Virus record (IMG/VR): IMGVR_UViG_3300042197_000494
Coordinates: 1-52,142 of that record
Length of the DNA stretch: 52,142 bases
Origin: a virus
Direction: 5' to 3' (one strand)
This document shows, piece after piece, positions 1-45,534 of the stretch. The notes below the pieces were generated by a model. That model did not search any database and was not told the DNA's origin. It saw only the letters and a list, made by a program, of their open reading frames with translations. Numbering within the stretch: the first letter of the stretch is position 1; each line of letters opens with the position of its first letter. A program made the translations under genes and the position numbers.

Positions 1-632
1 ACCACGCAAGCATCTATTCCACCCTTCGCAAAATACTTAGTCTTTGGACATAGATACTCTAGTCTAACTACTGCGCCATATCTAGTAAATCCTCTAAGAG
101 TGCTGTGATGGTCTTCTCCTGTATTGGTCATTCTTCTGTTGGGGTCTGTGAATATCCAGTCTTTGGCGTAAGATCCCATAAAGTTGGCACAAATATATCT
201 TAATCCTACGGAAATATGATTCTTGAGAAAGAAATGGTTCATGGTTGGGTTGATACCCCATTGCCTCGCTTGTTGGGCTTCTGCTACGGAAAATCCTACT
301 TCTGCTATTTCGTCCAATTGGTACCGTGTTGGTACCAGTTTCTTGTCTCCTAATTCTAGTAAATCTGCTAGGTCATCGTCAATACTGATTAATCTTTCAT
401 TTTCTGGAAACCAGTTGTGGTAAAACTTACGCTGACTAGAAATACCACGAACACCTACGATAATTTGATACTCGTCTTTTAATACAGAACTGTAAAGTTC
501 TTTCTGTTGTTCGTTGGCGACAAAGACATGTATCTTGCTTTTATCTACTTTAAGTCTTTCTAATGTGGCTAGGGTTTGATCTCGGCAAATCTCTGCTCTT
601 TGATAAGAAGGGATTACAACTTGATATTTCAA
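1..632 (-). CDS. TET/JBP-associated-type glycosyltransferase (partial, C-terminus outside window)
   Basis: The frame is open from a TTG at 632 to position 1 (210 codons); no ATG lies near the 5' end. The TTG overlaps the TGA stop of the dioxygenase gene, and AAGG lies about 10 nt upstream. The N-terminus LKYQVVIPSYQRAE is a GT-A fold start. ISIDDDLADLLEL (about residues 82-94) carries the DxD metal/nucleotide-sugar site, and GEDHHSTLR (172-180) is a likely catalytic acid region. This layout matches the glycosyltransferases known to accompany phage TET/JBP enzymes, which add a sugar to hydroxymethyl-pyrimidine in DNA. The direct overlap with a TET-like gene supports that role. The sugar and the exact base are unknown. 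The protein is cut by the window edge. Confidence 0.8.
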   Translation of the reverse strand, partial: MKYQVVIPSYQRAEICRDQTLATLERLKVDKSKIHVFVANEQQKELYSSVLKDEYQIIVGVRGISSQRKFYHNWFPENERLISIDDDLADLLELGDKKLVPTRYQLDEIAEVGFSVAEAQQARQWGINPTMNHFFLKNHISVGLRYICANFMGSYAKDWIFTDPNRRMTNTGEDHHSTLRGFTRYGAVVRLEYLCPKTKYFAKGGIDACV

Positions 633-1498
633 CGCCCTACCTTAAATTCAGTTTCACCTTTTAAGGCAGAAGCCAATCCTACTTCTCGCTGAGTTCTTCG
701 CTTTCTTGCTTCTTTCTGTTCGACCGCAAATGAAAAACAATCTTTCATGCCCCTTAAACAATAATAAACAACAGTGTATCGGTATGAATCTTTCTGAACA
801 TGGGCAATCGGTGTTACGCCATGAAGATATCTGTATCCTGGCCAAAATACTACCCAACCATCTCGGCAGTCTAATACCATATCGTATTCGGGTAAACTTA
901 AATAGCCACCTCTAGTTCCTCTTCTAATAATTGGCATGGCAGACCACATATCAAAATTGTTTCCGTCAAAATGATATGGCAGTGTTGAAGTTTTATTGAT
1001 AACTCCACTGGTCCACAAACTGCGTTCGCTTAATCTCCACTCATCTGCTACTCCTGCGGTCTCAACAGTATCTGCTGCGTAAGCATCTGGAACTATTTCC
1101 CTAATAATATCGGCTAATACATCTGCTGTTTTAGTTAATACATCGTGTTCTTCTGGTTGATCGTAAGATAAAGCAGTAGGACGACATGCTTCTCTTGTTT
1201 GAAAAGGTTTTCTTGGTGCCATGCCGAAAGTTCGAGAGTGATTTTCTACACCAGTTGATTGTCTTGTAACACCTGAAGAAGAATACTTTATTGAGCGAAC
1301 AGCCTTTCTTAATTCAGGCACAACTTCTTTAGGAAGAGGCATGTAAACTAAAAATGGCTCGTTAGATTCAGAGTCCACAAAAATACCTGCACTTTTTACA
1401 TTTGCTTCCATTTCTGGAACATCAATACCTTTTAACTCTTTTGTTTTTTTTCTGTCAATAACTCTTTTAACTGGAATAACTTCTAGGTCTTCAATCAC
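629..1498 (-). CDS. TET/JBP-family 2-oxoglutarate/Fe(II) DNA base dioxygenase
   Basis: 289 aa from a GTG at 1498, overlapping the upstream ParB-like gene by 8 bp, with GAGG about 9 nt upstream. The double-stranded beta-helix signature is present: LPYHFDGNNFDMWSAM holds the HxD iron ligands (H176, D178), RGTRGGYLSLPEYD follows, the distal iron ligand is H226 in RYLHGVTPI, and R240 in SYRYTVVYY is placed to bind 2-oxoglutarate. The N-terminal segment FGMAPRKPFQTREACRP is typical of phage TET/JBP members. Family members oxidise the methyl group of 5-methylcytosine (TET) or thymine (JBP) in DNA. Overlap with a glycosyltransferase gene suggests the hydroxymethyl product is then glycosylated to protect phage DNA. 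Which base is used cannot be read from sequence. Confidence 0.87.
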   Translation of the reverse strand: MIEDLEVIPVKRVIDRKKTKELKGIDVPEMEANVKSAGIFVDSESNEPFLVYMPLPKEVVPELRKAVRSIKYSSSGVTRQSTGVENHSRTFGMAPRKPFQTREACRPTALSYDQPEEHDVLTKTADVLADIIREIVPDAYAADTVETAGVADEWRLSERSLWTSGVINKTSTLPYHFDGNNFDMWSAMPIIRRGTRGGYLSLPEYDMVLDCRDGWVVFWPGYRYLHGVTPIAHVQKDSYRYTVVYYCLRGMKDCFSFAVEQKEARKRRTQREVGLASALKGETEFKVGR

Positions 1499-11036: not shown

Positions 11037-12026
11037 CTACACAGTTAGTAAAGATTGTGCTTTGCTTTTGAACTTTTCATTCACACCAAGTATTAATCGC
11101 TCGGCACGAAGTTCATCTTTACCTTCTTTACTTCTTACTGGTTTAGCCCAATCAGACCACTCCGCAACAGCGTTGTAGGCAGCCCATTTAGTTCCAGCAA
11201 TATTGCTTTGTGTGGGTGCTTTCCACAAAGCAAGTAATTCATTGCGCTTTTGCTCAAATGAGTTCTCAGCCCTCTTAGTCATTTCACCTTTAGGTTCAGG
11301 AACTAGAGTTTCAATGAACTTCTTGTATTGTGCATCTGAGAATTTCTCAGACAATAATTGTTCAACTTCTTGCTCGAAAGCCTCTTGGTATCTGAAAACA
11401 ACACCCAAAGTCTCTCTAGCCTGTTGAACTTTAGCGGTAGCACCAGCAGTATGCTTCAGTGAAATCTTAGACTTTGCCGCAGCAAGTGCTAAGCGAACTG
11501 TGTTTGTGCATACTGCTCGGATAGGTGTAACCGCAACAGTGAAGGAAGATGAACCATCGTGGCTATTAACAGCCATAATGTAGTTGTCTACTACATCTGC
11601 CCCATTGGCTAACTTCAATGATTCAGGGAACTTCATGGTCATAAATACTCGACCGCCCTCTTTCAATGAACCAGCAGTTTCAAATACCGCACCTGACTCA
11701 TCTGCAATATGATTTAAGAAATCAAATGCTTCTAAGTTTTGAATAGGTGTATATCGGTTACCGACTACACCGAGTGCGGTATAACCCAACTTTGGGTGAT
11801 TACGATAAGTAATAAACTTATCTTTTAATACAACAGTCTTGTCATCAACTATTGTGCGTATTGGTTCTTCACTTACTTTTACTGGCCACTCTAACTGTGC
11901 AGTTTTAAGTGCATCTTGTGCGGTTAGAGCATTCGGCGTAACTTCACCGAGTTTGTGCCAAGCGACTTCTCTGTTAGAAAAGAACGCACTGGTACCGTCA
12001 GCAAATTGCTCTATTTGGTGAGCCAT
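11037..12026 (-). CDS. DUF932 phage/plasmid-like protein
   Basis: 329 aa, ATG at 12026 with GAAAGGGTA. It shows the DUF932/TIGR03299 signature: FADGTSAFFSNREVAWHKLG, ALGVVGNRYTPIQNLEAFDFL, GGRVFMTMKFPE, IMAVNSHDGSSSFTVAVTPI and RAVCTNTVRLAL. It is common in actinophages and some plasmids; the biochemical role is unknown, though it is usually expressed early. It lies directly downstream of hammerhead A, so its mRNA should begin about 56 nt before the start codon after self-cleavage. Confidence 0.87.
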   Translation of the reverse strand: MAHQIEQFADGTSAFFSNREVAWHKLGEVTPNALTAQDALKTAQLEWPVKVSEEPIRTIVDDKTVVLKDKFITYRNHPKLGYTALGVVGNRYTPIQNLEAFDFLNHIADESGAVFETAGSLKEGGRVFMTMKFPESLKLANGADVVDNYIMAVNSHDGSSSFTVAVTPIRAVCTNTVRLALAAAKSKISLKHTAGATAKVQQARETLGVVFRYQEAFEQEVEQLLSEKFSDAQYKKFIETLVPEPKGEMTKRAENSFEQKRNELLALWKAPTQSNIAGTKWAAYNAVAEWSDWAKPVRSKEGKDELRAERLILGVNEKFKSKAQSLLTV

Positions 12027-12053
12027 TTACTATACCCTTTCGTTATTCTGATG

Positions 12054-12108
12054 AGGCTCATCAGTAGTGCCATTTAGCACTAGACCCTGCCAAGGCAGGG
12101 TTTCGCCT
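12054..12108 (-). ncRNA. Type II hammerhead ribozyme A
   Basis: All core positions are present on the minus strand. Open stem II is AGGC (12108-12105) with GCCT. GAAA is at 12104-12101. Stem III is CCCTGC/GCAGGG with loop CTTG-type closure. The GTC site cuts between 12083 and 12082. Stem I is TAGTGC/GCACTA with loop TAAATG. CTGATGA is at 12064-12058. The first A of stem II is the last base of the upstream stop codon. CTGATGA is followed by GCC and TCATCAG, a competing 7-bp hairpin. Confidence 0.9.
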
Positions 12109-12302
12109 TATTTAACATTCACCCACTGGCAAGCAACACGAAGTAAGTTGTCATAATCGCCCGACATAGATGCCTTCATATATTCATCTATTTGCTCTTG
12201 TGTTGCCCCTGCTTTCTTTAGGGCAGATTTAACTGACCCCATAATTGCGAAAGCATTTCCGTCATTACCAGTAAGTTGAACTACTGTATTGAACTTAGCC
12301 AT
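12108..12302 (-). CDS. Small conserved phage protein (64 aa)
   Basis: Starts MAKFNTVVQLTGNDGNAFAI at 12302 with AGAAAGGGTAAAT. A longer upstream start would run through ribozyme B and is rejected. The body VKSALKKAGATQEQIDEYMKA and YDNLLRVACQWVNV resembles small phage proteins of unknown function that often neighbour DUF932 genes. It is bracketed by two hammerheads, so it is predicted to be released as its own monocistronic mRNA. Its stop codon runs into ribozyme A. Confidence 0.72.
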   Translation of the reverse strand: MAKFNTVVQLTGNDGNAFAIMGSVKSALKKAGATQEQIDEYMKASMSGDYDNLLRVACQWVNVK

Positions 12303-12324
12303 ATTTACCCTTTCTTTAACTAAC

Positions 12325-12413
12325 AGACTCGTCAGTGCGGTCATTTAACCGCATACACCCAACGGAAGTTTTTTAAGCGTTTCACTTAGGCGTTTCCACT
12401 GGGTGTTTCGTCT
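12325..12413 (-). ncRNA. Type II hammerhead ribozyme B (extended stem III, GUA site)
   Basis: Stem II is AGAC (12413-12410) with GTCT (12328-12325). GAAA is followed by stem III CACCCA/TGGGTG, closed by a long insert that contains GGAA/TTCC and TAAG/CTTA pairings. The cleavage site is GTA, between 12354 and 12353. Stem I is TGCGGT/ACCGCA with loop TAAATG. CTGACGA is at 12335-12329. The ribozyme shares a base with the stop codon of the 12413-12685 gene. Confidence 0.87.
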
Positions 12414-12685
12414 TATCTTTTTTCTTTGAGATATTCTCCAACCATTTCTTTCATCTGTATATCGGTAATAGAATCGTTCAATTCTTTAGCCGTATCTATA
12501 CATACTTTGTATGAATCAGAAATGAAAACAGGCATGGTGGGAACGCCTGCGTTCATGAACTTCTGAAACGATTTCCAGTCAATGATGAAGCATTGACCTG
12601 ACTTAATCCAACCTTTTCTTACACAGGCATCGCCGTAGTAGCCACCTGACTGGCATGCTATGTATGAATTATTACTATTTGACAT
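12413..12685 (-). CDS. Hypothetical protein (90 aa)
   Basis: Starts MSNSNNSYIACQSGGYYGDA through a TAATG overlap with the upstream 44-aa gene. Contains three cysteines, a basic GWIKSGQCFIIDWKSFQKFM and a helical C-terminus (NDSITDIQMKEMVGEYLKEKR). No family recognised. The stop codon TAA begins ribozyme B, so the 3' end of this mRNA should carry the ribozyme stem III hairpin. Confidence 0.65.
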   Translation of the reverse strand: MSNSNNSYIACQSGGYYGDACVRKGWIKSGQCFIIDWKSFQKFMNAGVPTMPVFISDSYKVCIDTAKELNDSITDIQMKEMVGEYLKEKR

Positions 12686-12819
12686 TAGAAAGAGTTCCCT
12701 TCGTCATATAGTCGGTCTGGGTCTTCTTCGTAGCAGACACAATCCGATTCATCGCATTTATCACATGAATACATGCTTAATGCGGCAGGATCGCCTTGTA
12801 GATATTGCGGTTCGGCCAT
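12685..12819 (-). CDS. Very small acidic cysteine protein (44 aa)
   Basis: Starts MAEPQYLQGDPAALSMYSCD and continues CDKCDESDCVCYEEDPD. Four cysteines in CDKCDESDCVC could bind zinc or an Fe-S cluster. Both ends overlap neighbours as TAATG, a strong sign of translational coupling. Function unknown. Confidence 0.6.
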   Translation of the reverse strand: MAEPQYLQGDPAALSMYSCDKCDESDCVCYEEDPDRLYDEGNSF

Positions 12820-13025
12820 TATTTTCTTACCTTCATTATTGCGTAAGAGCCGTTTTTATTCATTTCTTCTAGAATTGGTTCTAGTTTTGGAACTAATAAG
12901 TCATTAACCATTTCGTTGATTAACTTTATCCTCACCGCTGGTGGTAGTGCCCACAACCGAGAAGATACTTCGTGCTTTTCATCTATGACTGTTTCTAGCA
13001 GTAATTGATGTTTGATAGTTTTCAT
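12819..13025 (-). CDS. Hypothetical protein (68 aa)
   Basis: Starts MKTIKHQLLLETVIDEKHEV with GAAAGGGTAAGCGC upstream. Helical throughout (LPPAVRIKLINEMVNDLLVPKLEPILEEM split across two helices). Its stop overlaps the ATG of the 44-aa gene. No family recognised. Confidence 0.65.
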   Translation of the reverse strand: MKTIKHQLLLETVIDEKHEVSSRLWALPPAVRIKLINEMVNDLLVPKLEPILEEMNKNGSYAIMKVRK

Positions 13026-13029
13026 GCGC

Positions 13030-13251
13030 TTACCCTTTCCTTAGTGCGGTTATTTTTTTATTCAACTTGCTTGTTTGTTCTTCTTGTATTGCAGTTAATT
13101 TTTTATTTAACTTATATATTTCGTCTTGAATGCGTTCTTCCTTGTCGCATTCTGCACACCAATAACCATAAAGACCATTGGCGAACAATGATTCAGCAAC
13201 TACTTGTTTCATTTCCATACATACATTGCATTTTTTATATTGGCTTATCAT
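13030..13251 (-). CDS. Zinc-motif coiled-coil hypothetical protein
   Basis: 73 aa. The N-terminus KCNVCMEMKQV and YGYWCAECDKEERI supply two CxxC pairs, a recycled zinc-finger pattern seen in phage 'recognition helix' mini-proteins. The C-terminus IQDEIYKLNKKLTAIQEEQ and LNKKITALRKG is a repeated coiled coil. It could dimerise and bind nucleic acid; function unknown. Confidence 0.65.
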   Translation of the reverse strand: MISQYKKCNVCMEMKQVVAESLFANGLYGYWCAECDKEERIQDEIYKLNKKLTAIQEEQTSKLNKKITALRKG

Positions 13252-13253
13252 AA

Positions 13254-13706
13254 CTAGTCCTGATCTTCAATAATTACTTCAGACCAGTCACAGTCTTCAT
13301 TAGTTAATTCACCCACTCCGTTGTAATCCAAACTGACAGAGAAGTCGTTGTCGCTGACTTCTTCATCTAATTCGCACTCAACAGTTAGTTTGTAAGTAAC
13401 AGTGAATTCAACTTCCACCTCTTTGGTTAAGGTGATTTCTAGTTCCCCAGCCAGTTCTTTTAGTTCTCCGACTGTGGCTTCATCATTGTCTTTAACATGT
13501 TCGGTGATGAAATTCTTGACTATTTCTAATTTGCTAGCCAAGTTGCTTCTATATGTTCTTTCATATTCAAGTTGACTCTTTAATGTATCAACTGAATTGC
13601 TGTACTTAACTAACTCGTCAACTATTTCTTGCGAGTTATGGTCTTTAACGAACTCGGCAGCAACTGCTTCTACTGTTGGTTCGTCTGTTTGTATTTCTGT
13701 TGTCAT
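13254..13706 (-). CDS. Acidic coiled-coil hypothetical protein
   Basis: 150 aa, GAAGGGTA before the ATG. An N-terminal acidic stretch, then a coiled coil (YSNSVDTLKSQLEYERTYRS), then an acidic beta-rich tail (EVEVEFTVTYKLTVECELDE, NEDCDWSEVIIEDQD). The tail architecture resembles small phage proteins with alternating acidic beta strands, of unknown function. It sits downstream of ribozyme C. Confidence 0.65.
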   Translation of the reverse strand: MTTEIQTDEPTVEAVAAEFVKDHNSQEIVDELVKYSNSVDTLKSQLEYERTYRSNLASKLEIVKNFITEHVKDNDEATVGELKELAGELEITLTKEVEVEFTVTYKLTVECELDEEVSDNDFSVSLDYNGVGELTNEDCDWSEVIIEDQD

Positions 13707-13733
13707 GTTTTACCCTTCATATTTTCTAACGAT

Positions 13734-13788
13734 TGGCTCGTCAGTATCGGCACTTACCGATAGACCCTACCGAAGTAGGGTTTCGCCA
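13734..13788 (-). ncRNA. Type II hammerhead ribozyme C
   Basis: Stem II is TGGC (13788-13785) with GCCA (13737-13734). GAAA leads to stem III CCCTAC/GTAGGG capped by a TTCG tetraloop. The GTC site cuts between 13763 and 13762. Stem I is TATCGG/CCGATA with loop TAAGTG. CTGACGA is at 13744-13738. It begins one base after the TAA of the upstream gene (13789-13791). All catalytic core bases match the consensus. Confidence 0.9.
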
Positions 13789-14250
13789 TTATGAAATTTC
13801 TTGCAAGTGTGCTTGACTTACTTCTGCACCATTTTTCGCAGCCCAATAGACTGCTTGTAAGAAGGTTTCGTCATACTTCTTTTCGTGTTGCATGTTCTTT
13901 GACTTTGTTATTCGCTTGAACCAAGTCGGGAACTTTTCATTGGTGACATTAGTATTGATACCTATACGGCGACTAATATCTTCTACTGTATAGAAGTAAG
14001 GAACTACGGTGTCTTCGCCACTGCAGTTATAGCATTGGGTGCATCCCTGTTCTACTTTGTTTATGTAAGCACCGTCTATTGCTTCTAGGACTTTGATTCT
14101 TGCGTGTACATCAGCATAGTTTTTTACAGTTATTTTACCAATGCCTGTTGCCATCATCAGCCAAATTAACTGTTCGGTTATGCTTTTATTTTCATTTGAC
14201 CATAACTCTTCGTGGTTACGGCAAGCAGTTATATCCCATGATAGTGCCAT
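13789..14250 (-). CDS. Hypothetical protein with HTH-like C-terminus
   Basis: 153 aa, AAGAAGGGTAAATAA before the ATG. It begins MALSWDITACRNHEELWSNE. The middle has CTQCYNC, a close cysteine cluster. The C-terminal half (VEDISRRIGINTNVTNEKFPTW, FLQAVYWAAKNGA) may be helix-turn-helix. Similar proteins occur in actinophage early operons; the N-terminus resembles a phage family that may bind DNA. It lies between ribozymes D and C and so is predicted to form a one-gene message. Confidence 0.62.
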   Translation of the reverse strand: MALSWDITACRNHEELWSNENKSITEQLIWLMMATGIGKITVKNYADVHARIKVLEAIDGAYINKVEQGCTQCYNCSGEDTVVPYFYTVEDISRRIGINTNVTNEKFPTWFKRITKSKNMQHEKKYDETFLQAVYWAAKNGAEVSQAHLQEIS

Positions 14251-14270
14251 TTATTTACCCTTCTTAATCT

Positions 14271-14323
14271 GAACTCGTCAGCGTTGGCGTTTACCAACGG
14301 ACTGCCCGAAGGCAGTTTCGTTC
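14271..14323 (-). ncRNA. Type II hammerhead ribozyme D
   Basis: Stem II is GAAC (14323-14320) with GTTC (14274-14271). GAAA leads to stem III CTGCC/GGCAG capped by TTCG. The GTC site cuts between 14300 and 14299. Stem I is CGTTGG/CCAACG with loop TAAACG. CTGACGA is at 14281-14275. It lies 5 bp after the stop of the 14329 gene and 20 bp before the next start. All core bases match. Confidence 0.9.
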
Positions 14324-14328
14324 TTTGA

Positions 14329-14658
14329 TTAATTGGTTAAGGCTTTATCTTTGATAAGTTTCCAGCCGACCATTTCGCAACTGTAAGCACGACCATCTAG
14401 AACTACTTGGTCACCAACACTTAGAGCAGTATGACTTCTTTCTTCAGGCATTTTGCCGTCAAGGAACAACTTCCATATTGCACCTTGATATAAATTAGTG
14501 CACTCGAACAAATAATCGAGCATCCTAATATCGTCCTCGTCAACTTCCCATTTATCGGTAGGAACTTCGAAAGACATTTCAGCATTACCTATTTTGCCTT
14601 TTTCAGCAAGAGCAACTGCTTGGTGTTGAAAAGCAGTCCACTTGATTGTTATATTCAT
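14329..14658 (-). CDS. Hypothetical protein (109 aa)
   Basis: Starts MNITIKWTAFQHQAVALAEK with GAAAGGGTAACA. Mixed alpha/beta: EMSFEVPTDKWEVDEDDIRM, LYQGAIWKLFLDGKMPEERS, LSVGDQVVLDGRAYSCE. The last part (VGDQVVLDGRAYSCEMVGWKLI) resembles a small beta-barrel. No family recognised. The ATTCGGCTGTC element lies 35 nt upstream. Confidence 0.65.
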   Translation of the reverse strand: MNITIKWTAFQHQAVALAEKGKIGNAEMSFEVPTDKWEVDEDDIRMLDYLFECTNLYQGAIWKLFLDGKMPEERSHTALSVGDQVVLDGRAYSCEMVGWKLIKDKALTN

Positions 14659-14692
14659 TGTTACCCTTTCGTTAGTGTTTGAAACTGAAACG

Positions 14693-14707
14693 AACGACAG
14701 CCGAATC
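14693..14707 (-). promoter_or_regulatory. ATTCGGCTGTC element, copy 2
   Basis: Minus strand GATTCGGCTGTCGTT, identical over 15 bases to the copy at 16352-16366 and over 11 bases to 10631-10641. It lies 35 nt before the ATG of the 14329-14658 gene, in an intergenic gap with no other feature. Confidence 0.55.
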
Positions 14708-14714
14708 AGTATTT

Positions 14715-14894
14715 TTAATCAAGCGAACCATGTTCTTGAATATATTCGCTTGCCATTTTCTTTGCTTGCTCTCTTGTTACATATTTATAGACCCTAGAGC
14801 CTAGTGATAAATCACCAATACTGGCTCTAACCATAACTGTGTAATCATGCTTGATAATTACCCAGTCAATTTCTTTTAGAGTTAATTTATCCAT
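14715..14894 (-). CDS. Small hypothetical protein (59 aa)
   Basis: Starts MDKLTLKEIDWVIIKHDYTV, has AGAGGG upstream and ends YIQEHGSLD. It looks like a short beta-beta-alpha unit: VIIKHDYTVMVRASIGDLSL, then VYKYVTREQAKKMASEYIQ. No family recognised. Confidence 0.58.
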   Translation of the reverse strand: MDKLTLKEIDWVIIKHDYTVMVRASIGDLSLGSRVYKYVTREQAKKMASEYIQEHGSLD

Positions 14895-14920
14895 AACTTT
14901 TCAACCCTCTTTCGTTTAGT

Positions 14921-15127
14921 TTAGGAACGACCTGAAGACCTTCCGTGCTTCAAGTCGGGACTGTCTTTGTGGACAATAGTGAAACCTTGCTTTGGCACAA
15001 GCAATAATCGGTAATTTTCTCTACCGCTAATGCCATTTTCAATTAAACAATTTCTTTGCATGCAGTAGTGGTAACCCAGTTCCCATCTTTCTGGATTAAC
15101 TGGGTCGCCACAGGTAATACAGTTCAC
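14921..15127 (-). CDS. Small zinc-finger-like protein
   Basis: 68 aa. CITCGDPVNPERWELGYHYC followed by MQRNC gives four cysteines arranged for zinc. The tail is basic (LKHGRSSGRS). The pattern CxxCGxPVxPER is recurrent in actinophage small proteins of unknown function. Its ATG overlaps the upstream stop by 1 base. Confidence 0.68.
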   Translation of the reverse strand: MNCITCGDPVNPERWELGYHYCMQRNCLIENGISGRENYRLLLVPKQGFTIVHKDSPDLKHGRSSGRS

Positions 15128-15381
15128 TACTTGACTTCCGTCTTAACATAAACTCTAGTCACCCTTGTTCCCTCAAGGTTTTCTAGTTCATAGATAGTTT
15201 CATCTTCATAGACATCAATTACCAAAGAAGGTGAATCAATATTCTTGTTAATAAAATTGACTCGCCTTTTTACAGAGTTTGCATTATCTTCGGGAGTAGC
15301 ATAATCTCCACCACAACCGCAGGCACAACCAGTCTTCCCACGATATGTTTCATTGACATCTTGCATTTTGATAGTGTTCAT
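15127..15381 (-). CDS. First early-operon gene, small cysteine protein
   Basis: 84 aa, GAAAGGGTAACCA before the ATG. The N-terminal TYRGKTGCACGCGGDYATPED gives a CxCxC cluster; it is followed by SVKRRVNFINKNIDSPSL and a beta-rich acidic tail. The cysteine cluster resembles that of a small phage family seen near the start of actinophage early operons. Function unknown. It follows ribozyme E, which sits in the leader. Confidence 0.65.
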   Translation of the reverse strand: MNTIKMQDVNETYRGKTGCACGCGGDYATPEDNANSVKRRVNFINKNIDSPSLVIDVYEDETIYELENLEGTRVTRVYVKTEVK

Positions 15382-15404
15382 TGGTTACCCTTTCGTTTTC
15401 AGAC

Positions 15405-15464
15405 AGACTCGTCAGTTACGGCGGATACCGTAAGACACGCAACAGGATGCTGCGTGTTTCGTCT
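15405..15464 (-). ncRNA. Type II hammerhead ribozyme E (in the operon leader)
   Basis: Stem II is AGAC (15464-15461) with GTCT (15408-15405). GAAA leads to stem III CACGCA/TGCGTG. The GTC site cuts between 15434 and 15433. Stem I is TTACGG/CCGTAA with loop TATCCG, differing from the TAAxxG loops of the others. CTGACGA is at 15415-15409. It lies upstream of the first gene, so cutting would remove the long 5' leader and leave a 5' hairpin close to the ribosome site. Confidence 0.9.
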
Positions 15465-16097
15465 TATATAATTAGTTGCACAACTTACTACCGCAAGATA
15501 GTTTGTTGATATATTTGAATTTACAGTTTGAAGTCATTCGCCGTAGGTCTAATCTCTTTACCGTTGCGACCGGAATCACTTTTATCACTCGCTCTTTTGT
15601 TAGTGGAACTAACACAGTTATCGCGAAAGTAATATCCTCACCTAGAACTGGCTAAGTCGTCGTATTATCTTGATTGACCAAGTAGTAATCTTTGAAATGA
15701 ATCAGTCTTGTTAAGTTCGCTTTTACGAGCACCCAAATTATTGTAACGATTTAGGATGCTGAGACTTCTCAAAGAGTTTCCTTTGACTATCCCTTCAGTA
15801 TGTAATTATCAGGTAATAATCTTTCTGTCACCTTAAGAAGTTCCCTAGGGATTTAATGACTTCCTAAGTTCACCAGAGTTTTATCCCTGACCGTAGTTTT
15901 TTCACTTTTGAGTTTTGCCCCTTGGGGTTTCTGAAAACTCAGCCGTGCCTACCCCTTCATTTTACCGCTTCAGACTGTAAAACACTACCCCCACGACACG
16001 CTTGGTCTGCTTTGGTTTTAAGCCCTATCTTTTGATATACCCCCTAGAAGGGGCTTAGAAGCCCATTACAGAGGCTATTATTAAAATATAGTAGTTA
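15465..16097 (-). other. Long non-coding leader / possible origin or early promoter region
   Basis: About 630 bp with no supportable gene on either strand. Hairpins visible: TGAGTTTT/AAAACTCA (15909-15916 with 15934-15941), enclosing CCCC-TT-GGGG, and the palindrome TCCCTAGGGA near 15842. AT-rich runs are scattered through it. It separates the repressor gene from the early operon and most likely contains the leftward early promoter and a long 5' UTR. A replication origin or an unrecognised ncRNA is also possible. No clear -35/-10 pair could be chosen. Confidence 0.5.
16041..16064 (-). terminator. Overlapping alternative hairpins after the repressor gene
   Basis: On the minus strand GGGCTT pairs with AAGCCC (16051-16056 with 16059-16064). 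The overlapping CCCC (16041-16044) can instead pair with GGGG (16050-16053). The two folds exclude each other. It starts about 34 bp after the repressor stop. The T-run is poor, so it is a weak terminator or attenuator candidate. Confidence 0.35.
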
Positions 16098-18009: not shown

Positions 18010-18567
18010 TTACTTTCCTTTGATTATCTTGTTTTCAAGGGTCTGAGTATAATACAGAAATGGTGCGCTTGTGTAAGCATCGTTCTTGGCTGCTATCTCA
18101 AGTGCCTTGGATATTGTTGCTCCTGCCTCCAGTGCTCCAATAGCATAGGGTGAACCTGAACCAACACCATAGAATCCAGTTCCATCAAGAGTTACGGACA
18201 TATCATCTGTTATTTCGAAGACCTGTCCTCCAATAGCAATGAGAAAATTAAACTTGATTTCATCATCTTCTCTGTCCCACTTGTATTCATTTTGTTTGAA
18301 ACAAGCCTTTAATGAAGGTATAACCTTCGCAACAATGAAGCGGTAAATATCATTCCACTCAACTCCTTTGGGAGAAGGTGGTTTCCAAATATGTTGCGCT
18401 ATATCGCAAGGCGCACATTCACCCGAACCAGCAATAAGAAATGGACCACGCTGAGTTATCTTGACCATTTCGCCATGTCTTTGAACTCGACCATTATTAG
18501 ATGTAACTTGACTATCAGCCCCAAAGATAACTTTATCTTTTTGCTGGACTGCAATTATTGTGGTCAT
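18010..18567 (-). CDS. HslV/proteasome-beta-like Ntn hydrolase
   Basis: 185 aa. MTTIIAVQQKDKVIFGADSQ begins with Thr2 placed as the N-terminal nucleophile after Met removal. D18 in GADSQVT and K36 in HGEMVKI match the Asp/Lys pair of HslV and proteasome beta subunits. FLIAGSGECAP and GFYGVGSGSPYAIGALEAGA are further family landmarks. Actinobacteria have proteasomes, and a phage copy could form its own protease or modify the host one. It lies between the tail terminator and the lysis genes, so it should have its own promoter or be read through. Confidence 0.78.
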   Translation of the reverse strand: MTTIIAVQQKDKVIFGADSQVTSNNGRVQRHGEMVKITQRGPFLIAGSGECAPCDIAQHIWKPPSPKGVEWNDIYRFIVAKVIPSLKACFKQNEYKWDREDDEIKFNFLIAIGGQVFEITDDMSVTLDGTGFYGVGSGSPYAIGALEAGATISKALEIAAKNDAYTSAPFLYYTQTLENKIIKGK

Positions 18568-31146: not shown

Positions 31147-32943
31147 TTATGCGGCATATCGAACTATAACGATACCTGAGCCACCTGAACCACCACTAGA
31201 ATTAAAAGTTGCTCCAGCGCCACCGCCACCGCCAGTATTATCTGTCCCCGATGTACCATTATGGGTTCCAGTACCACCTGTTGTAAAGTTTCCTGCTCCA
31301 CCGCCACCTGAACCGCCAGTTCCTCCAGCAGTTGCACCTGTACCATAACAACCACCACCACCACCACCTGCATAAGTGACAGATGAACCAGTAATTGAAA
31401 TAGCAACACCAGCACCACCATTACCACCAGTAGTTGATGTAGCAGTTCCCGCTTGTCCTACCGCTCCTGCTCCTCCACCACCACCACCACGATAAATACC
31501 TGTGGATTGGGTCATACCATTACCACCAGCAAAACCTTGACCTGAAGGAGATGCTGTGCCACCAGTACCAGCAGGAGAAGCATCTTCTCCAGCACCACCA
31601 CCACCGCTACCACCTGAATTTGCGTTTAGTGTACCTGAAGGTCGATAACTTCCACCACCACCACCGCCAGTTGAAGTAATACTTGAAAACACAGAGTTTG
31701 AACCATTACTACCTGCGGGTCTATCGCTATTACTACCACTAGGAGAACCAGCACCACCAGCACCGACTGTTACTGTGTATCCAGTCCCCGAAGTTAGTGA
31801 TAATGCTGATTCAAGTGAACCTCCACCGCCAGTTGCGGTTACGGTAGAACGCAATCCACCAGCACCGCCACCACCGCCATGTTGTGTACCACCACCCGCT
31901 CCACCTGCTACGACTAAATAATCAGCAGTTAAATTTTGAGTAGGTGTAAAAGTTCCACTAGATGTGAATGTGTGAATAATATAGCCACCAGTTGAATCAT
32001 AAGTAATAGTTCCACCAGTTGCTTTTGTTGGCACAGTAGTAAAAGTCCCTGATGAATTAAATGTATAAACTGTGTATGAACCTGAAGTGGTCTGAGTACC
32101 ACCAATGAATGTGCCTTCTGAAGTTAGAGCGCGAAGGATTACAACTCCTGAACCACCTGCTGCACCATTACCACCACTAGTTCCACCACCACCTCCGCCA
32201 CCACCTAGGTTGACAGTTCCAGCAGTACCGTGTGCAGTCGCATTTGCACCTGCACCTCCACCACCAGTTCCTCCAGCACCAGCATTGGCTCCACCGCCAC
32301 CACCGCCACCACCGCCATAAGTTACGGATGAACCAGTAATTGATACTGCAGTTCCATTTCCTCCAGCACCACAAACTGAACTGGTTGCAGTTCCGCCAGC
32401 AGCACTGGTTCCTCCTCCACCACCGCATCTTTGATTTCCAGAAGAACCTGCTCCACCATCTTTACCTTGACTAGCGGTACCTAAACCAGCAGCGAACCCA
32501 CCGACTCCTTGAGCACCTCCGCCACCGCATCCACCATTAGCACCAGAACCTTGACCTGAACCATCTCCTCCACCACCACCTCCGCCTAAAGAAGTAATAG
32601 TTGAAAATATAGAATCAGAACCATTAGAGCCTCGTTGGTTTGGGTCAGCACCTCTTGCTCCGCCACCGCCAACTGTAACTGTATATGAAGTTGCTAAAGT
32701 AAGGGACAACGCAGTTTCTAAAGTTCCACCATTACCAGTTGCTGTTACAGTTGAGCGTAAACCTCCAGCACCTCCGCCACCAGAACATTCATCACCACCT
32801 CCACCACCACCAGCAAGTACAAGATAATCAACTGGAATAATGGTTTGTCCTCTAGCCCCAGTCAAAGTGATATTACCTGTGGTCAAAGATGAAACTTGTG
32901 ACCCGGGAATCATGATGCGCTGTAAGCCGAGGTGTGTGGTCAT
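31147..32943 (-). CDS. Glycine-rich fibre protein 1
   Basis: 598 aa. Two repeats of a module: a beta-strand 'DYLVLAGGGGGG', Gly-rich loops, 'GGLRSTVTATG', 'ALSLT..TSYTVTVGGGG', 'SIFSTITSLGGGGGG' and 'SITGSSVTYGGGGGGG', ending GSGIVIVRYAA. Polyglycine-II type lattices are known in phage adhesin tips. Likely a receptor-binding or fibre protein. It is a paralogue of the 33351-35099 gene. Several proline- or valine-rich frames seen in its other reading frames are shadows. Confidence 0.82.
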   Translation of the reverse strand: MTTHLGLQRIMIPGSQVSSLTTGNITLTGARGQTIIPVDYLVLAGGGGGGDECSGGGGAGGLRSTVTATGNGGTLETALSLTLATSYTVTVGGGGARGADPNQRGSNGSDSIFSTITSLGGGGGGGDGSGQGSGANGGCGGGGAQGVGGFAAGLGTASQGKDGGAGSSGNQRCGGGGGTSAAGGTATSSVCGAGGNGTAVSITGSSVTYGGGGGGGGGANAGAGGTGGGGAGANATAHGTAGTVNLGGGGGGGGTSGGNGAAGGSGVVILRALTSEGTFIGGTQTTSGSYTVYTFNSSGTFTTVPTKATGGTITYDSTGGYIIHTFTSSGTFTPTQNLTADYLVVAGGAGGGTQHGGGGGAGGLRSTVTATGGGGSLESALSLTSGTGYTVTVGAGGAGSPSGSNSDRPAGSNGSNSVFSSITSTGGGGGGSYRPSGTLNANSGGSGGGGAGEDASPAGTGGTASPSGQGFAGGNGMTQSTGIYRGGGGGGAGAVGQAGTATSTTGGNGGAGVAISITGSSVTYAGGGGGGCYGTGATAGGTGGSGGGGAGNFTTGGTGTHNGTSGTDNTGGGGGAGATFNSSGGSGGSGIVIVRYAA

Positions 32944-33350: not shown

Positions 33351-35099
33351 TTATGCCGCATAACGAATAATAACAATTCCTGAACCGCCAGAGCCACCAT
33401 TAAATGCAGTACCAGTGTAACCACCACCACCGCCTCCGCCACCAGTGTTTACAGTACCAGAATCACCAGCAACAATTTTATTACCATTACCGCCACCACC
33501 AGTACCGCCTGTACCTCTAGCAACATCATTACCACTCCAAACACCACCACCTGCACCACCGCCACCTGCATAATTAGTAGAAGTGCCAGAAATTGAATTA
33601 CTTACTCCCGCACCACCATTACCTGATGTACTAGTGTTTGGTGCAGTTTGTCCAGCAGCACCAGCACCTCCGCCTCCACCACTAGCATTACCAGCAGAAG
33701 CATTACCACCTGCAAAACCTTGATTTGCTGTACCTGCACCACCAGTAAAACCATCAGTTGAGGCACCTCCACCAGAACCACCACTACCGCCAGCCTTAGG
33801 ACCAACACCACTACCACCACCACCGCCACCGCCAGTGGAGGTGATAGTAGAAAATACTGAGTTGGAACCATTAGTTCCTCTTAACGCGCCTGAAGCACCA
33901 GCACCACCGCCACCTACTGTTACTGTATAACCAGTACCAGAAGTTAGAGACAATGTTGATTCAACAGAGCCGCCACCTCCAGTAGATATAACGGTACTGC
34001 GTAAACCTCCCGCACCGCCACCGCCACCTACAGCACCACCACCGCCTGCGCCTCCAGCAACAACTAAGTAATCAGCAGTAATGTTGCTTGTCGGCGTAAA
34101 AGTTCCTGATGAAGTAAAAGTATGAACCCAAAATCCGCCATCTTTAGTAATCGTTCCGCCAAGTGCTTTTGCTAGAGAGTATCTAACAATTACAACACCG
34201 CTACCGCCTGCTGCGCCAGCACGATATCCTCCTGAAAAGTATGCGCCACCTCCACCGCCACCGCCAAGATTTGTACCACCAGCAACAGAAGGAGATGTAT
34301 TATCTGATGAACCACCAGCACCGCCACCACCTGTACCACCTGTACCGCCAGCAGCATTACCACCAACGCTATCTTTGCGGCCACCGCCACCGCCTCCACC
34401 TGCATAGGTTACAGAAGTACCAGTTATTGATGATGCAACACCATTACCACCATTAGCGCCAGCAGTGTTTGTACCAGTAGAAGCATTTGAACCAACTGCT
34501 CCTGCACCACCGCCACCTGAACCTGAACTAGCACCACCAGTTTGTCCACCACCTGCAAAACCTTGATTTGCAGTTCCTGCTGCTCCTGCACCAGCATTAC
34601 CACCGCCACCGCCTGAACCACCAGTTGTTGCCGCAGTACCATCACCACCACCTGCACCACCAGCAGTTGAAGTGATAGTAGAAAATACTGAGTTATTACC
34701 TGCTGTACCTGTTAAACCAGTAGCACCAGCACCTGCTCCGCCACCACCAACTGTAACTGTGTAACCAATACCTGATGTTAAAGATAATGCAGATTCTAAT
34801 GAACCACCACCGCCAGTAGCAGTTACAGTAGAGCGTAATCCACCAGCACCACCGCCACCACCAAGTGAACCACCTCCACCACCACCTGCTACTACTAGAT
34901 AATCAACAGTTAGATTTTGAGTAGGAGTGAAAGTATCTGAAGAATTAAAAGTGTGAACAATATAAGGATAATCTAAAGATACAGTTCCTCCGATTGCCAA
35001 AGGTCTAATTCCAGCAGAAGGCGTGGTGATAGCACCCGTCAGTAAAGATGAAACTTGAACTGACGGGTTAGCACCAAGAAGTCGTGATGGTAGTGACAC
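33351..35099 (-). CDS. Glycine-rich fibre protein 2
   Basis: 582 aa, built like the 31147 protein: repeats of 'TVDYLVVAGGGGGG', 'GGLRSTVTATGGGG', 'YTVTVGGGGAG', 'SVFSTITSTGGGGGG', with final 'GSGIVIIRYAA'. It contains two full modules. The N-terminus MSLPSRLLGANPSVQVSSLL is similar to the paralogue's. Sequence similarity at DNA level invites recombination between the two genes and could diversify host binding. Confidence 0.82.
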   Translation of the reverse strand: MSLPSRLLGANPSVQVSSLLTGAITTPSAGIRPLAIGGTVSLDYPYIVHTFNSSDTFTPTQNLTVDYLVVAGGGGGGSLGGGGGAGGLRSTVTATGGGGSLESALSLTSGIGYTVTVGGGGAGAGATGLTGTAGNNSVFSTITSTAGGAGGGDGTAATTGGSGGGGGNAGAGAAGTANQGFAGGGQTGGASSGSGGGGAGAVGSNASTGTNTAGANGGNGVASSITGTSVTYAGGGGGGGRKDSVGGNAAGGTGGTGGGGAGGSSDNTSPSVAGGTNLGGGGGGGAYFSGGYRAGAAGGSGVVIVRYSLAKALGGTITKDGGFWVHTFTSSGTFTPTSNITADYLVVAGGAGGGGAVGGGGGAGGLRSTVISTGGGGSVESTLSLTSGTGYTVTVGGGGAGASGALRGTNGSNSVFSTITSTGGGGGGGSGVGPKAGGSGGSGGGASTDGFTGGAGTANQGFAGGNASAGNASGGGGGAGAAGQTAPNTSTSGNGGAGVSNSISGTSTNYAGGGGAGGGVWSGNDVARGTGGTGGGGNGNKIVAGDSGTVNTGGGGGGGGYTGTAFNGGSGGSGIVIIRYAA

Positions 35100-42142: not shown

Positions 42143-43039
42143 CTAAATATCCCACTCACCATCTAAGCCTAGTTCCCTCATCTCATCTTGTGGCAAACCT
42201 TCAAGTGCTCCTTGTTGAATCCAACCGACTTTTGTTCTTCTGCTTGATATTTGAATTTTATTTAATTTACCTAAAGAGATATCATATTTATTATATCCAG
42301 TTTGTAATTTATTTAGTTTTGCTTGCCCTGTGAGAGATTTAGCATCATTCCAATCTTTTTTCGCTGAGTTTAACCCATTCATTACGGTATCTAAACTTCT
42401 TATTTCTTTCATTGAATCGGCTTCGCCCTGAACTTCTTTTAAGTCTGACAATATAGAATCAACATTATCGTTCAATTTAGGTATTGTTTCGTCTGCTAAT
42501 TTATCTGAATATTCAACAGTATTTGCTGTGTTTGGTTTTGGTTTAGATCCCCCACTACTTGAACCACCACCACCTCTGCCACCTCTGCGACCATGTGATG
42601 CTTGGTTGTGGGAGCCGTGTTTTTCTATATTAATATCAATGCTTTTTTCTAAAGAAATAACAGTCAAATCTGCTCCGTTAATATAGCCTTCTTCTCCATC
42701 ATCTGTTTTTACTCCATGAAATTTACCTGAAGGTGCTGATTGCACTACCCTTCCTTTTTTCCCATCAAGCGCACTACCTCCGCTAATCTTAACTCTCACA
42801 CCTTCAGCATTTTTTATATTATCTAAAGTATCGCCACGCTTCAAACCTTTTTTTGACCCACTATTACCGAAATTTAATCTTGCTAATTCACGCAAATCAG
42901 CACTGGAAAGTCCGCTAGCCCCACTGTTTCCACCACTACCTTTTCTGCCATGAGAAGCCTGATTGTGTGAGCCATGTTTCTCTATTGTTTCTCTGTGAAG
43001 CAATATTGTAGTTTCAGGTAAAGACTTTCTAACAAACAT
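42143..43039 (-). CDS. His-tag-motif head protein 2 (two copies of the motif)
   Basis: 298 aa, AAGGGAGATAAATA before the ATG. EKHGSHNQASHGRKGSGG is at residues 20-37 (42947-42979) and EKHGSHNQASHGRRGG at 139-154 (42590-42622). Between them is a small SH3-like or KOW-like domain (GVRVKISGGSALDGKKGRVV, KFHGVKTDDGEEGYINGADL). The C-terminus is a long helical domain (LADETIPKLNDNVDSILSDL). The repeated motif suggests two tagged modules in one protein. Confidence 0.7.
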   Translation of the reverse strand: MFVRKSLPETTILLHRETIEKHGSHNQASHGRKGSGGNSGASGLSSADLRELARLNFGNSGSKKGLKRGDTLDNIKNAEGVRVKISGGSALDGKKGRVVQSAPSGKFHGVKTDDGEEGYINGADLTVISLEKSIDINIEKHGSHNQASHGRRGGRGGGGSSSGGSKPKPNTANTVEYSDKLADETIPKLNDNVDSILSDLKEVQGEADSMKEIRSLDTVMNGLNSAKKDWNDAKSLTGQAKLNKLQTGYNKYDISLGKLNKIQISSRRTKVGWIQQGALEGLPQDEMRELGLDGEWDI

Positions 43040-45534
43040 TATTTATCTCCCTTAGATGAAAGAGGGTGCTCTTTAGGTAGTAGGTCTGTATCATACGCCC
43101 CTCGCTTGAATCTTCCATTACGCAACGCATGAAGGAAGCCATTAACTCTACCCATAGCCCATTGTTCTTTGCCTGTTACATTTGGGCGAACAGATGAAGG
43201 ATTGGTTCTATATGCCCCTACACCTCTTCGGTAAACTTGCATCAATGTTCCAGCAGTAGTTCTTTTACCTTTAGCGTCACCTACGGCATCATTATGCTCT
43301 TTGGCTTTATCTTGTAATTTACTTTCAGTTGATTTCTCAACATCTTTATCTGTAGTTCTCAAAGAACTAAAAGGTTTCAGAACTCTTCGGTCGGTCTCTT
43401 CATATCCGTCATCTGTTTCAGCCCATACTCTTAATACCGCAATAGGGTCGTCTTCTGATGCTATCTCTTCTTCTTGAGTTCCTCTAAGTTTAATTGTGCC
43501 ACTAGTTTCTATTCTTTCTACTTGGGCAGTTGCGTATGTAGTTCCTTCTGGTTTAGTAACAGAATATAGAACTATATCTCCGACCTCTATATCTTTTGCT
43601 TTTTTAACTTTCCTCTTAGGTGGTTTCATTATTGTATCTACATGAACCGCATTAACTCCGGGATCACTCTTTTCTGCATCATCTGGTATTTCTGCACCTA
43701 ATCTTTTTGCTTTACCACCAATAGAATATCCACGAAGTTTGCCCGACTTCACTAACTCCCAAGCCCAGTCTTTCCACAACACTCCCATAAATACTGTGTT
43801 GGCTGGATAGGTAAACTCTGTCTTATCGCCATTAGATTTAGTCACTGGTATCTTTAATTCATAAGGGAAGGTCATCATCTCTACCCACTCACCTGCTACT
43901 ACATCTCGATTATGTTGAAGTCTGATATCTCTATCTCCTGAACGGACATACTCCCATACGGCTTTCTGTAACTCTTCTTCGTCTGTCCACTCACTATGGG
44001 CATCTAGTTTATTTGGAATATAAAGTGGACCAAGCGTAAACTTCTTGTCATCTGCTTTGATAAATGGCTCTTCATACCAAAGAGATTTGGCTGTTGAATC
44101 AAGAGACCTTCTGCCAATTCCTTTTTCGTCTGACCATTTCGTTGCCGCAGATAATGCTTCTTTTGCTGGTAAATCAATACGATAAACAGGTAATCTAGCC
44201 TTTGGGTCATCAAATCCTAAAGCAACAGCAGCAGCCCAAGTATGATGTCCGTCAATTACATAACCATCTGAAGAAACTAAAATGCGTTGTTCGTCGGGAA
44301 CTACTCCGCCACTTGCTTTGTATTTTTCATAAATAGCACCAGAGCGAGAACCTGATACTTCTTTCTGCACTGGCTTAAGAATCTTGGGGTCAATTGAATC
44401 TTTCGTAGTCTTTGTTCCACTTTTTGCTAAATCTGACAAGAACTCATCTCTGCGTTCTGAAGGAACTTGTGGCATATCTTTTCTAGCAATACCTAAACCT
44501 TCACCACCAAATAGCATTGAACCTTCAACCTTGAGTTCTGTAATATCGGGGTGGTCTTCTAATTTAGCAAGACCGCTGAATAATGGACCTACATCTTTTT
44601 CGCCAACTGTTGGGCTACCACCAGCATTTATTTCATCTGCGATACTGCGGGCAAACTTACCGCTATGTGATTTCTGGTCATGTTTTCCTTGAAGATGTTT
44701 CTCAAGAGATTTATCAACTCCGCGTAAAATGCCTCTGACCCAACTAAATCCAGAGTCGCCACCCCAAGCGTCCCATGCTACTCTGCCACCACTGGGATAA
44801 TTCTTCTCACCTCGGTTAAAACCTTCTGCCTTCTTATCCACTTCATGTCTAGAAAAAAAAGAGTTCATGCGTTTTATGGTTCTTAAACTAACAGGTCTTC
44901 TACCTGCTAACTGTGCTGCTCTTGCTCTACCTACATCTGTAAAACCACCGCCAGCCTTACCTTCTCGTATCCACTCTAATGCTCTTTTAGCATCTCTTGA
45001 TACCGAAACTGGTGGAGTAAATGTATCTGTATCTGCTGCTTTATCTAACTTTTCCTTACTTGGATTAACAAGTATTTCTAATCCATCTCCCCATAGACCA
45101 AATGCAATTTTGAAATAATCTATCTCTCCGTCTTCCCATTTACCGATGATATCTTCAACCAACTCTTCTTCTCCGCTAAATAACTCTTCTAATTCAACAC
45201 CATCTAGATTAAGTTCCGGGTCTATGATAACTTCTTTTTCAAACAGTTCCCCTTGGCTTAGGTCATATCCTCTTTTTGCTAATTCTGTAGTTATGTAATG
45301 GTGTGTGGCTAAACTCGTAGCATTGATCTCTGATTTACTTATCTTGTTTTGTAGGTTCAATAATGATTCAGTAGTTGCTTTCTGTATAGCGTCTGGAACA
45401 TTGGCGTATAAAGCCCTTACATGTTTTGCCGCATCTTGCTTTGTGGCATGGCAAGCGACCATTTCGCCTGTGTCTGGTTTAATTACGGCAAACCCAGAGC
45501 AACCTTCTACATCACTCGCTACTTTATACGGCAT
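43039..45534 (-). CDS. Head polyprotein: ParB-like and XkdF-type prohead protease domains
   Basis: 831 aa. Modules in order: residues 1-50 (EGCSGFAVIKPDTGEMVACH); 175-268, a phage module (RTIKRMNSFFSRHEVDKKAE, GGRVAWDAWGGDSGFSWVRG); the His motif KHLQGKHDQKSHSG (279-292); a ParB/Srx-like fold about 400-455 (RILVSSDGYVIDGHHTWAAA); an XkdF-like serine protease about 495-620 (LYIPNKLDAHSEWTDEEELQ, H513; GYSIGGKAKR, S604); a small beta domain about 645-720; and a C-terminal helical module (VYRRGVGAYRTNP). It overlaps the next gene start. Probably cleaves scaffold during maturation. Confidence 0.78.
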   Translation of the reverse strand: MPYKVASDVEGCSGFAVIKPDTGEMVACHATKQDAAKHVRALYANVPDAIQKATTESLLNLQNKISKSEINATSLATHHYITTELAKRGYDLSQGELFEKEVIIDPELNLDGVELEELFSGEEELVEDIIGKWEDGEIDYFKIAFGLWGDGLEILVNPSKEKLDKAADTDTFTPPVSVSRDAKRALEWIREGKAGGGFTDVGRARAAQLAGRRPVSLRTIKRMNSFFSRHEVDKKAEGFNRGEKNYPSGGRVAWDAWGGDSGFSWVRGILRGVDKSLEKHLQGKHDQKSHSGKFARSIADEINAGGSPTVGEKDVGPLFSGLAKLEDHPDITELKVEGSMLFGGEGLGIARKDMPQVPSERRDEFLSDLAKSGTKTTKDSIDPKILKPVQKEVSGSRSGAIYEKYKASGGVVPDEQRILVSSDGYVIDGHHTWAAAVALGFDDPKARLPVYRIDLPAKEALSAATKWSDEKGIGRRSLDSTAKSLWYEEPFIKADDKKFTLGPLYIPNKLDAHSEWTDEEELQKAVWEYVRSGDRDIRLQHNRDVVAGEWVEMMTFPYELKIPVTKSNGDKTEFTYPANTVFMGVLWKDWAWELVKSGKLRGYSIGGKAKRLGAEIPDDAEKSDPGVNAVHVDTIMKPPKRKVKKAKDIEVGDIVLYSVTKPEGTTYATAQVERIETSGTIKLRGTQEEEIASEDDPIAVLRVWAETDDGYEETDRRVLKPFSSLRTTDKDVEKSTESKLQDKAKEHNDAVGDAKGKRTTAGTLMQVYRRGVGAYRTNPSSVRPNVTGKEQWAMGRVNGFLHALRNGRFKRGAYDTDLLPKEHPLSSKGDK

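What the first reader, a model, noticed from the sequence alone, without database searches (positions are those of the whole stretch)
12054..15464. Five type II hammerhead ribozymes in one phage early operon
At 15405-15464, 14271-14323, 13734-13788, 12325-12413 and 12054-12108 the transcribed strand carries every hammerhead core base: CTGAYGA, GAAA, NUH (GTC or GTA), three stems with exact complementarity, and open stem II. All stems differ in sequence but pair, which is strong covariation within one genome. Four sit exactly between genes and one in the leader. Type II hammerheads are known in bacteria, phages and metagenomes; a regular array cutting one polycistronic phage mRNA into short units is not something I know to be described.
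Basis: partly seen in the sequence, partly recalled or inferred. Interest (0 to 1): 0.95.

Follow-up and report, generated by a model that had tools for sequence, protein, structure and literature searches.

The report
Phage operon cut by hammerhead ribozymes
This phage carries five small self-cutting RNAs placed between the genes of one early operon, a layout already known in outline from other phages and conserved in about 45 related contigs here; the new part is a sequence just downstream of many copies that can fold the catalytic core into an inactive hairpin, which looks like a built-in switch or release clamp.

Summary
Confirmed. The five type II hammerhead motifs are at the stated coordinates with intact cores and nowhere else in the window. 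A model trained only on unrelated phages finds the same five and nothing else. Related phages carry 1-8 copies upstream of a DUF932 gene, always on the sense strand, although the genes between them turn over.

The array as such is not new. Perreault 2011 described hammerhead clusters flanking phage genes, proposed the same mRNA processing, and showed cleavage in vitro and in E. coli. IMG/VR holds arrays of up to 10 copies, and cultured Streptomyces phages R4 and Hank144 carry 8-9.

What looks new is a subclass with a 4-bp stem II whose downstream tail pairs with the catalytic CUGANGA; tail and core covary (U-A 49, C-G 40, U-G 4, unpaired 5). This hairpin excludes the active fold, is predicted about 5.7 kcal/mol more stable, and is commoner between genes than in leaders. 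In this clade 60 of 82 intergenic copies abut the upstream stop codon. Cleavage and the hairpin's role remain unmeasured.

The parts
15405..15464 (-). Hammerhead copy 1 (leader), type II, GUC site, cut between 15434 and 15433
   Evidence: 56.2 bits; 37.3 bits
14271..14323 (-). Hammerhead copy 2, between the genes 14329-14658 and 13789-14250; GUC; cut 14300/14299; only a weak 4-bp core-tail helix
   Evidence: 65.8 bits; 55.7 bits
13734..13788 (-). Hammerhead copy 3, between the genes 13789-14250 and 13254-13706; GUC; cut 13763/13762; abuts the stop codon
   Evidence: Rfam 33.1 bits; 67.8 bits; 48.4 bits
12325..12413 (-). Hammerhead copy 4, between the genes 12413-12685 and 12108-12302; GUA; 12-bp stem III with a long loop; cut 12354/12353; abuts the stop codon; weakest copy
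   Evidence: 48.4 bits; 17.3 bits
12054..12108 (-). Hammerhead copy 5, between the genes 12108-12302 and 11037-12026 (DUF932); GUC; cut 12083/12082; abuts the stop codon
   Evidence: Rfam 32.7 bits; 69.4 bits; 52.2 bits
13726..13744 (-). Core-tail hairpin of copy 3: CUGACGA, loop GCCAA, UCGUUAG (7 bp)
   Evidence: L008 has the U-A version CUGAUGA...UCAUUAG
12320..12335 (-). Core-tail hairpin of copy 4: CUGACG, loop AGUC, UGUUAG (6 bp, two of them G-U)
12048..12064 (-). Core-tail hairpin of copy 5: CUGAUGA, loop GCC, UCAUCAG (7 bp); the same junction in L022 and L006 has CUGACGA...UCGUCAG
11037..12026 (-). DUF932 gene (phrog_1221), last gene after the array; many relatives have a hammerhead directly before it
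12108..12302 (-). Small gene (phrog_1933), alone between copies 4 and 5
13254..13706 (-). Gene B, 150 aa, unknown function; many relatives have a hammerhead directly before it
15127..15381 (-). First gene of the operon (84 aa, phrog_5930), after the leader copy
15794..15960 (-). Conserved structured leader element that copy 1 would separate from the mRNA; related but a separate finding

Best explanation
The operon is transcribed as one RNA that contains five self-cleaving type II hammerhead ribozymes, one in the leader and four between genes. Each cuts itself 3' of its NUH triplet, splitting the message into units of one to a few genes. Each upstream product would end with the stem III hairpin and a 2',3'-cyclic phosphate. 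Each downstream product would start with a 5'-OH nucleotide already paired in stem I, followed by the ribosome-binding site and a start codon mostly 14-33 nt after the ribozyme. In many intergenic copies (copies 3, 4 and 5 here) the sequence after stem II can pair with the catalytic CUGANGA, and that paired state cannot be the active ribozyme. I think this hairpin sets the outcome of folding. If stem II forms first, the RNA cuts, and the hairpin then displaces the 4-bp stem II, makes the cut irreversible, and folds the new mRNA 5' end into two abutting hairpins. If the hairpin forms first, for example when a ribosome finishing the upstream gene covers the stem II strand that abuts the stop codon, the junction stays uncut. 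Shown here by sequence: the motifs, their covariation, their conservation in the clade, the stop-codon abutment and the core-tail covariation. Inferred: cleavage in this phage, end protection, release and ribosome gating. The stated confidence is for the processing array; for any active role of the hairpin it is about 0.7, and for ribosome gating in particular about 0.35.
For: Exactly five motifs with intact cores; independent model R2 finds the same five and nothing else. On 34 relatives' copies every stem pairs, with 162 double-changed cells and covariation 0.881 against 0.212 shuffled. All 115 copies in 45 contigs lie on the coding strand and none lies outside this operon in the whole records scanned. 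Copies persist before DUF932 and gene B while the genes between them turn over. In 60 of 82 cases the stop codon ends 0-1 nt from stem II. Core-tail covariation T-A 49, C-G 40, T-G 4, not pairing 5; alternative fold a median 5.7 kcal/mol better, core paired in the 3' product with P about 0.97; enriched between genes, 49/65 against 5/18 in leaders. Comparable native hammerhead arrays cleave in vitro and in E. coli (PMC3088659).
Against: No cleavage or transcript data for this phage. All five copies are below the Rfam cutoff. No clear loop I/tail pseudoknot in these copies, so fast cleavage at low Mg2+ is not assured; copy 4 has a GUA site and a long stem III loop. Copies 1 and 2 lack a good core-tail hairpin. 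Energies ignore tertiary contacts. The leader/intergenic difference is only p = 0.018 on non-redundant copies, and no test was corrected by a tree.
Confidence: 0.8

Rival explanations
1. The ribozymes are plain processing sites and the core-tail hairpin is only a cap and release clamp: after cleavage it shields the new mRNA 5' end and keeps the ribosome-binding site clear. It has no switching role.
For: In the cleaved product the two hairpins abut and the core is paired with P about 0.97. In the other subclass the tail pairs with loop I instead, so in both the tail structures the 5' end. Perreault found that the pseudoknot forms without the rest of the ribozyme.
Against: Leader copies would need a cap as much as intergenic ones, yet they have the hairpin less often (5/18 against 49/65).
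Confidence: 0.4
2. The cuts serve to destroy or down-tune the message: uncapped 5'-OH fragments are degraded, and the number of ribozymes sets expression of the genes.
For: Cleavage of an operon mRNA can lower expression; both ends created are unusual (general knowledge, not tested here).
Against: Each copy sits before a ribosome-binding site and start codon, and both new ends are hairpins, which suggests usable mRNAs rather than decay.
Confidence: 0.08
3. Paired hammerheads produce circular or ligated RNAs of the genes between them.
For: Co-directional copies flank single genes, the geometry that yields unit-length RNAs in viroid-like agents.
Against: Perreault looked for such products and found none. 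No RNA ligase domain appeared among the window proteins scanned with Pfam; the PHROG 'RNA ligase' label on the 831-aa protein falls on a Peptidase_S78_2 domain. The core-tail hairpin would oppose religation.
Confidence: 0.03
4. The motifs are chance or decayed, inactive remnants.
For: Rfam scores are below the cutoff and no activity has been measured.
Against: Chance predicts about 0.02 hits per window. Stems covary strongly and cores are intact across dozens of phages, which needs selection on the fold.
Confidence: 0.02

Closest known systems
Clustered phage and prophage hammerheads, including type II (Perreault et al. 2011, PMC3088659)
   Same: Several hammerheads in one orientation flanking single genes or gene blocks in phage transcripts; same proposed mRNA processing; type II permutation.
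   Different: Here the cluster is a conserved feature of one operon across about 45 contigs, with up to 8 copies, stop-codon abutment, a 4-bp stem II, no clear pseudoknot and a core-tail hairpin.
Rfam RF02276 Hammerhead_II
   Same: Same core, same permutation, stems I and III closed, stem II open.
   Different: The window copies score 33 bits or less against a cutoff of 37. The Rfam model fits the 3-bp stem II pseudoknot copies of L040, L056, L078 and Streptomyces phages R4 and Hank144 better.
HHphage of haloviruses HF1 and HF2 (in PMC3088659)
   Same: Hammerhead 13 nt upstream of a start codon in a polycistronic early transcript, with RNA evidence of cleavage.
   Different: A single, structurally unusual copy with a variant core in an archaeal virus.
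RiboJ-type ribozyme insulators (synthetic biology; from my own knowledge)
   Same: Works alike: a hammerhead followed by a hairpin trims the message and exposes the ribosome-binding site.
   Different: Engineered from a plant satellite ribozyme, with a separate downstream hairpin; here the hairpin is made from the catalytic core itself.

Membership tests
Type II hammerhead ribozyme | Conserved core CUGANGA, GAAA and NUH in the hammerhead arrangement | tested here: met
   All five copies; invariant core columns in 34 copies
Type II hammerhead ribozyme | Three helices around the core supported by covariation | tested here: met
   510 of 510 cells paired, 162 with both sides changed, far above slid and shuffled controls; intact stems were required by the scan
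Type II hammerhead ribozyme | Permutation with stems I and III closed by loops and stem II open | tested here: met
   Order stem II, GAAA, stem III, NUH, stem I, CUGANGA, stem II in all five
Type II hammerhead ribozyme | Self-cleavage 3' of NUH in Mg2+ | not testable with these tools
   Needs in vitro transcription
[quoted passage not shown] common but not defining (about 40% of hammerheads likely use the pseudoknot) | tested here: inconclusive
   No pseudoknot beyond chance in the window copies; a non-Watson-Crick contact by the UAAAUG-like loop I is possible but cannot be tested here
Rfam RF02276 (operational cutoff, not a biochemical definition) | Score at or above 37 bits | tested here: not met
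   Two copies at 33.1 and 32.7 bits, three not listed. I file the copies under the ribozyme class, not as RF02276 hits; R2 gives E = 5e-18 to 0.001
Phage hammerhead arrays that process polycistronic mRNA | Several co-directional hammerheads flanking genes of one transcript | tested here: met
   Five copies on one strand between consecutive genes; 115 of 115 copies in relatives on the coding strand
Phage hammerhead arrays that process polycistronic mRNA | Processed mRNA ends in infected cells | not testable with these tools
   No expression data available

The most novel reading that the evidence does not exclude
A large natural subclass of hammerhead ribozymes carries an evolved, mutually exclusive 'anti-core' hairpin formed between its own catalytic CUGANGA and the downstream tail. 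It is concentrated at gene junctions where the stop codon abuts stem II, so translation termination and cleavage are coupled: a natural ribosome-gated ribozyme switch that decides whether neighbouring genes share an mRNA.
Probability: 0.35. Interest if true: 0.82.

Novelty: new variant of a known kind. Interest (0 to 1): 0.6.

Why it matters
What bacterial and phage hammerheads do has been called an open question (PMC6155905). A clade with 1-8 copies placed between stop codon and ribosome-binding site, plus cultured Streptomyces phages with 8-9 copies, makes the mRNA-processing idea directly testable. The covarying core-tail hairpin, if it acts, would be a natural design for controlling a self-cleaving ribozyme from its own flank, useful for understanding phage gene expression and as a genetic part. 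The work also shows that the Rfam model misses a common phage subclass.

Tried and rejected
Refutation by the Rfam cutoff: rejected after the independent model R2 recovered all five copies.

'Unique array': rejected.

Relatives among cultured phages: no DNA match for the operon. By DUF932 protein 542 records match, but none of the seven phages inspected, nor seven actinobacterial genome loci, carries copies near the gene. The host is therefore only guessed as actinobacterial.

Loop I/tail pseudoknot in the window copies: not supported. Other ribozymes in relatives that lack hammerheads: no Rfam match. RNA ligase and circularisation: the PHROG 'RNA ligase' label is a protease-domain hit.
Full report
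Observation. The window is a 52,142-base IMG/VR virus record. Rfam's RF02276 sees two, at 33 bits, below its cutoff of 37. Searched over the window it returns the five copies and nothing else up to E = 10. The model from the clade itself (R1) agrees. The motif is real; copy 4 (GUA site, long stem III) is the least certain to be active.

Surroundings. The genes of the region run on the minus strand. After a leader of about 600 nt come copy 1, four small genes, copy 2, one gene, copy 3, a group of small genes, copy 4, one gene (phrog_1933), copy 5, then a DUF932 gene; a RecT gene follows further on. Apart from the DUF932 and RecT families, no named family was found for the proteins of the array. 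There is no excess of promoter-like or terminator-like sites within the operon.

Relatives. DUF932 and phrog_1933 searches of viral contigs gave over 100 loci. Of these, 45 distinct contigs carry 115 descriptor hits, every one on the coding strand; R1 gives 132 matches over 1.47 Mb, all on the coding strand. Whole-record scans place all copies in this operon. L056 has eight copies by descriptor, L040 six. The genes between copies differ widely, but a leader copy and copies before DUF932 and before gene B recur. On 34 aligned copies all 510 stem cells pair, 162 with both sides changed, and the covariation score is 0.881 against 0.212 in shuffles and at most 0.130 in slid controls; the 100% is partly by construction, since the descriptor asked for intact stems.

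Placement. Of 82 copies with an upstream gene, 60 have its stop codon ending at or one base before the first paired base of stem II; starts lie mostly 14-33 nt after the ribozyme, behind a GAAAGGGTA-like site. Twenty-eight copies have no gene of 40 codons or more ending within 60 nt upstream and were treated as leader copies. In an unbiased IMG/VR sample the abutment is looser (112 of 321), so it is a habit of this clade, not a requirement.

A second structure. In many copies the bases right after stem II are complementary to the catalytic CUGANGA. Helices of six or more pairs occur in 21 of 57 non-redundant copies, against 1.1 expected with shuffled tails and 12.5 when real tails are dealt among copies. 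The variable core base and its tail partner change together: T-A 49, C-G 40, T-G 4, not pairing 5, with both versions present in several stem II backgrounds; Fisher p = 9e-21 on all copies and 1.5e-5 on distinct strings, neither corrected by a tree. A direct case is the copy before DUF932: CUGAUGA...UCAUCAG in the window, CUGACGA...UCGUCAG in L022 and L006. The hairpin also appears in phages found without reference to DUF932 (52 of 251 copies with a 4-bp stem II, against 6.3 with shuffled and 39 with dealt tails; none of 94 with a 2-3-bp stem II). Copies with a 3-bp stem II instead show a loop I/tail complementarity like the pseudoknot of Perreault 2011 (15 of 16 with four or more pairs), while 4-bp copies mostly do not (6 of 38).

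What it may do. The hairpin uses the catalytic bases, so it and the active ribozyme exclude each other. By nearest-neighbour energies at 25 C it is a median 5.7 kcal/mol more stable than the hammerhead secondary structure where it has six or more pairs, and in the cleaved 3' product the core is paired with probability about 0.97, giving two abutting hairpins at the 5' end. In the window copies 3, 4 and 5 form it, copy 2 weakly, copy 1 not. It is commoner in intergenic than in leader copies (49/65 against 5/18; 22/31 against 2/9 on non-redundant copies). That enrichment speaks for a role tied to the upstream gene, hence the suggested coupling to translation termination, but a simple clamp or cap is about as likely. 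Cleavage, end protection and ribosome coupling are inferences.

Known or new. Clustered phage hammerheads, the processing idea and their activity in vitro and in E. coli were published in 2011 (PMC3088659) and reviewed in 2017 (PMC6155905). Arrays of up to ten copies exist in other IMG/VR contigs (L372), and the cultured Streptomyces phages R4 and Hank144 carry 8-9 copies, most above the Rfam cutoff, none listed among the annotated features of the stretches shown. I found no description of the core-tail hairpin or of the stop-codon abutment in the open-access papers searched; most subscription papers, and supplementary files, could not be searched. I therefore rate this a new variant of a known kind.

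Leader RNA. About 330 nt upstream of copy 1 lies a conserved element of roughly 165 nt with 30 predicted pairs, 16 of them with changes on both sides, no Rfam match, and a model that also finds it in two relatives not used to build it. Copy 1 would cut it off the mRNA. It deserves its own study.

Noticed in passing
window 15794-15960 (-): Conserved leader element of about 165 nt upstream of the leader hammerhead, 30 predicted pairs of which 16 show changes on both sides, no Rfam match; also found by its own model in L074 and L060, which were not used to build it. A candidate new structured RNA.
   Followed up: partly
L385 (Streptomyces phage R4) and L386 (Streptomyces phage Hank144): Cultured phages with 8-9 type II hammerheads on the sense strand of a gene block, most above the Rfam cutoff, not among the annotated features shown. 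A ready laboratory system.
   Followed up: partly
L372 5454-11441 (-): Ten type II hammerheads on one strand within 6 kb, the longest array seen here.
   Followed up: no
window 629-1498 (-): Protein matching Tet_JBP, a 2-oxoglutarate/Fe(II) oxygenase domain, just at the Pfam cutoff; it may hint at modified bases in the phage DNA.
   Followed up: no
window 43039-45534 (-): The 831-aa protein carries a PHROG label 'RNA ligase' over residues 494-618, but Pfam puts Peptidase_S78_2 (phage protease) there; the PHROG name looks misleading.
   Followed up: yes
window 18010-18567 (-): 185-aa protein with a weak N-terminal match to proteasome subunits, in a region of tail and lysis genes.
   Followed up: no
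window 31147-32943 and 33351-35099 (-): Two nearby large proteins of about 590 aa match the same PHROG (phrog_2295), apparently a duplicated gene.
   Followed up: no
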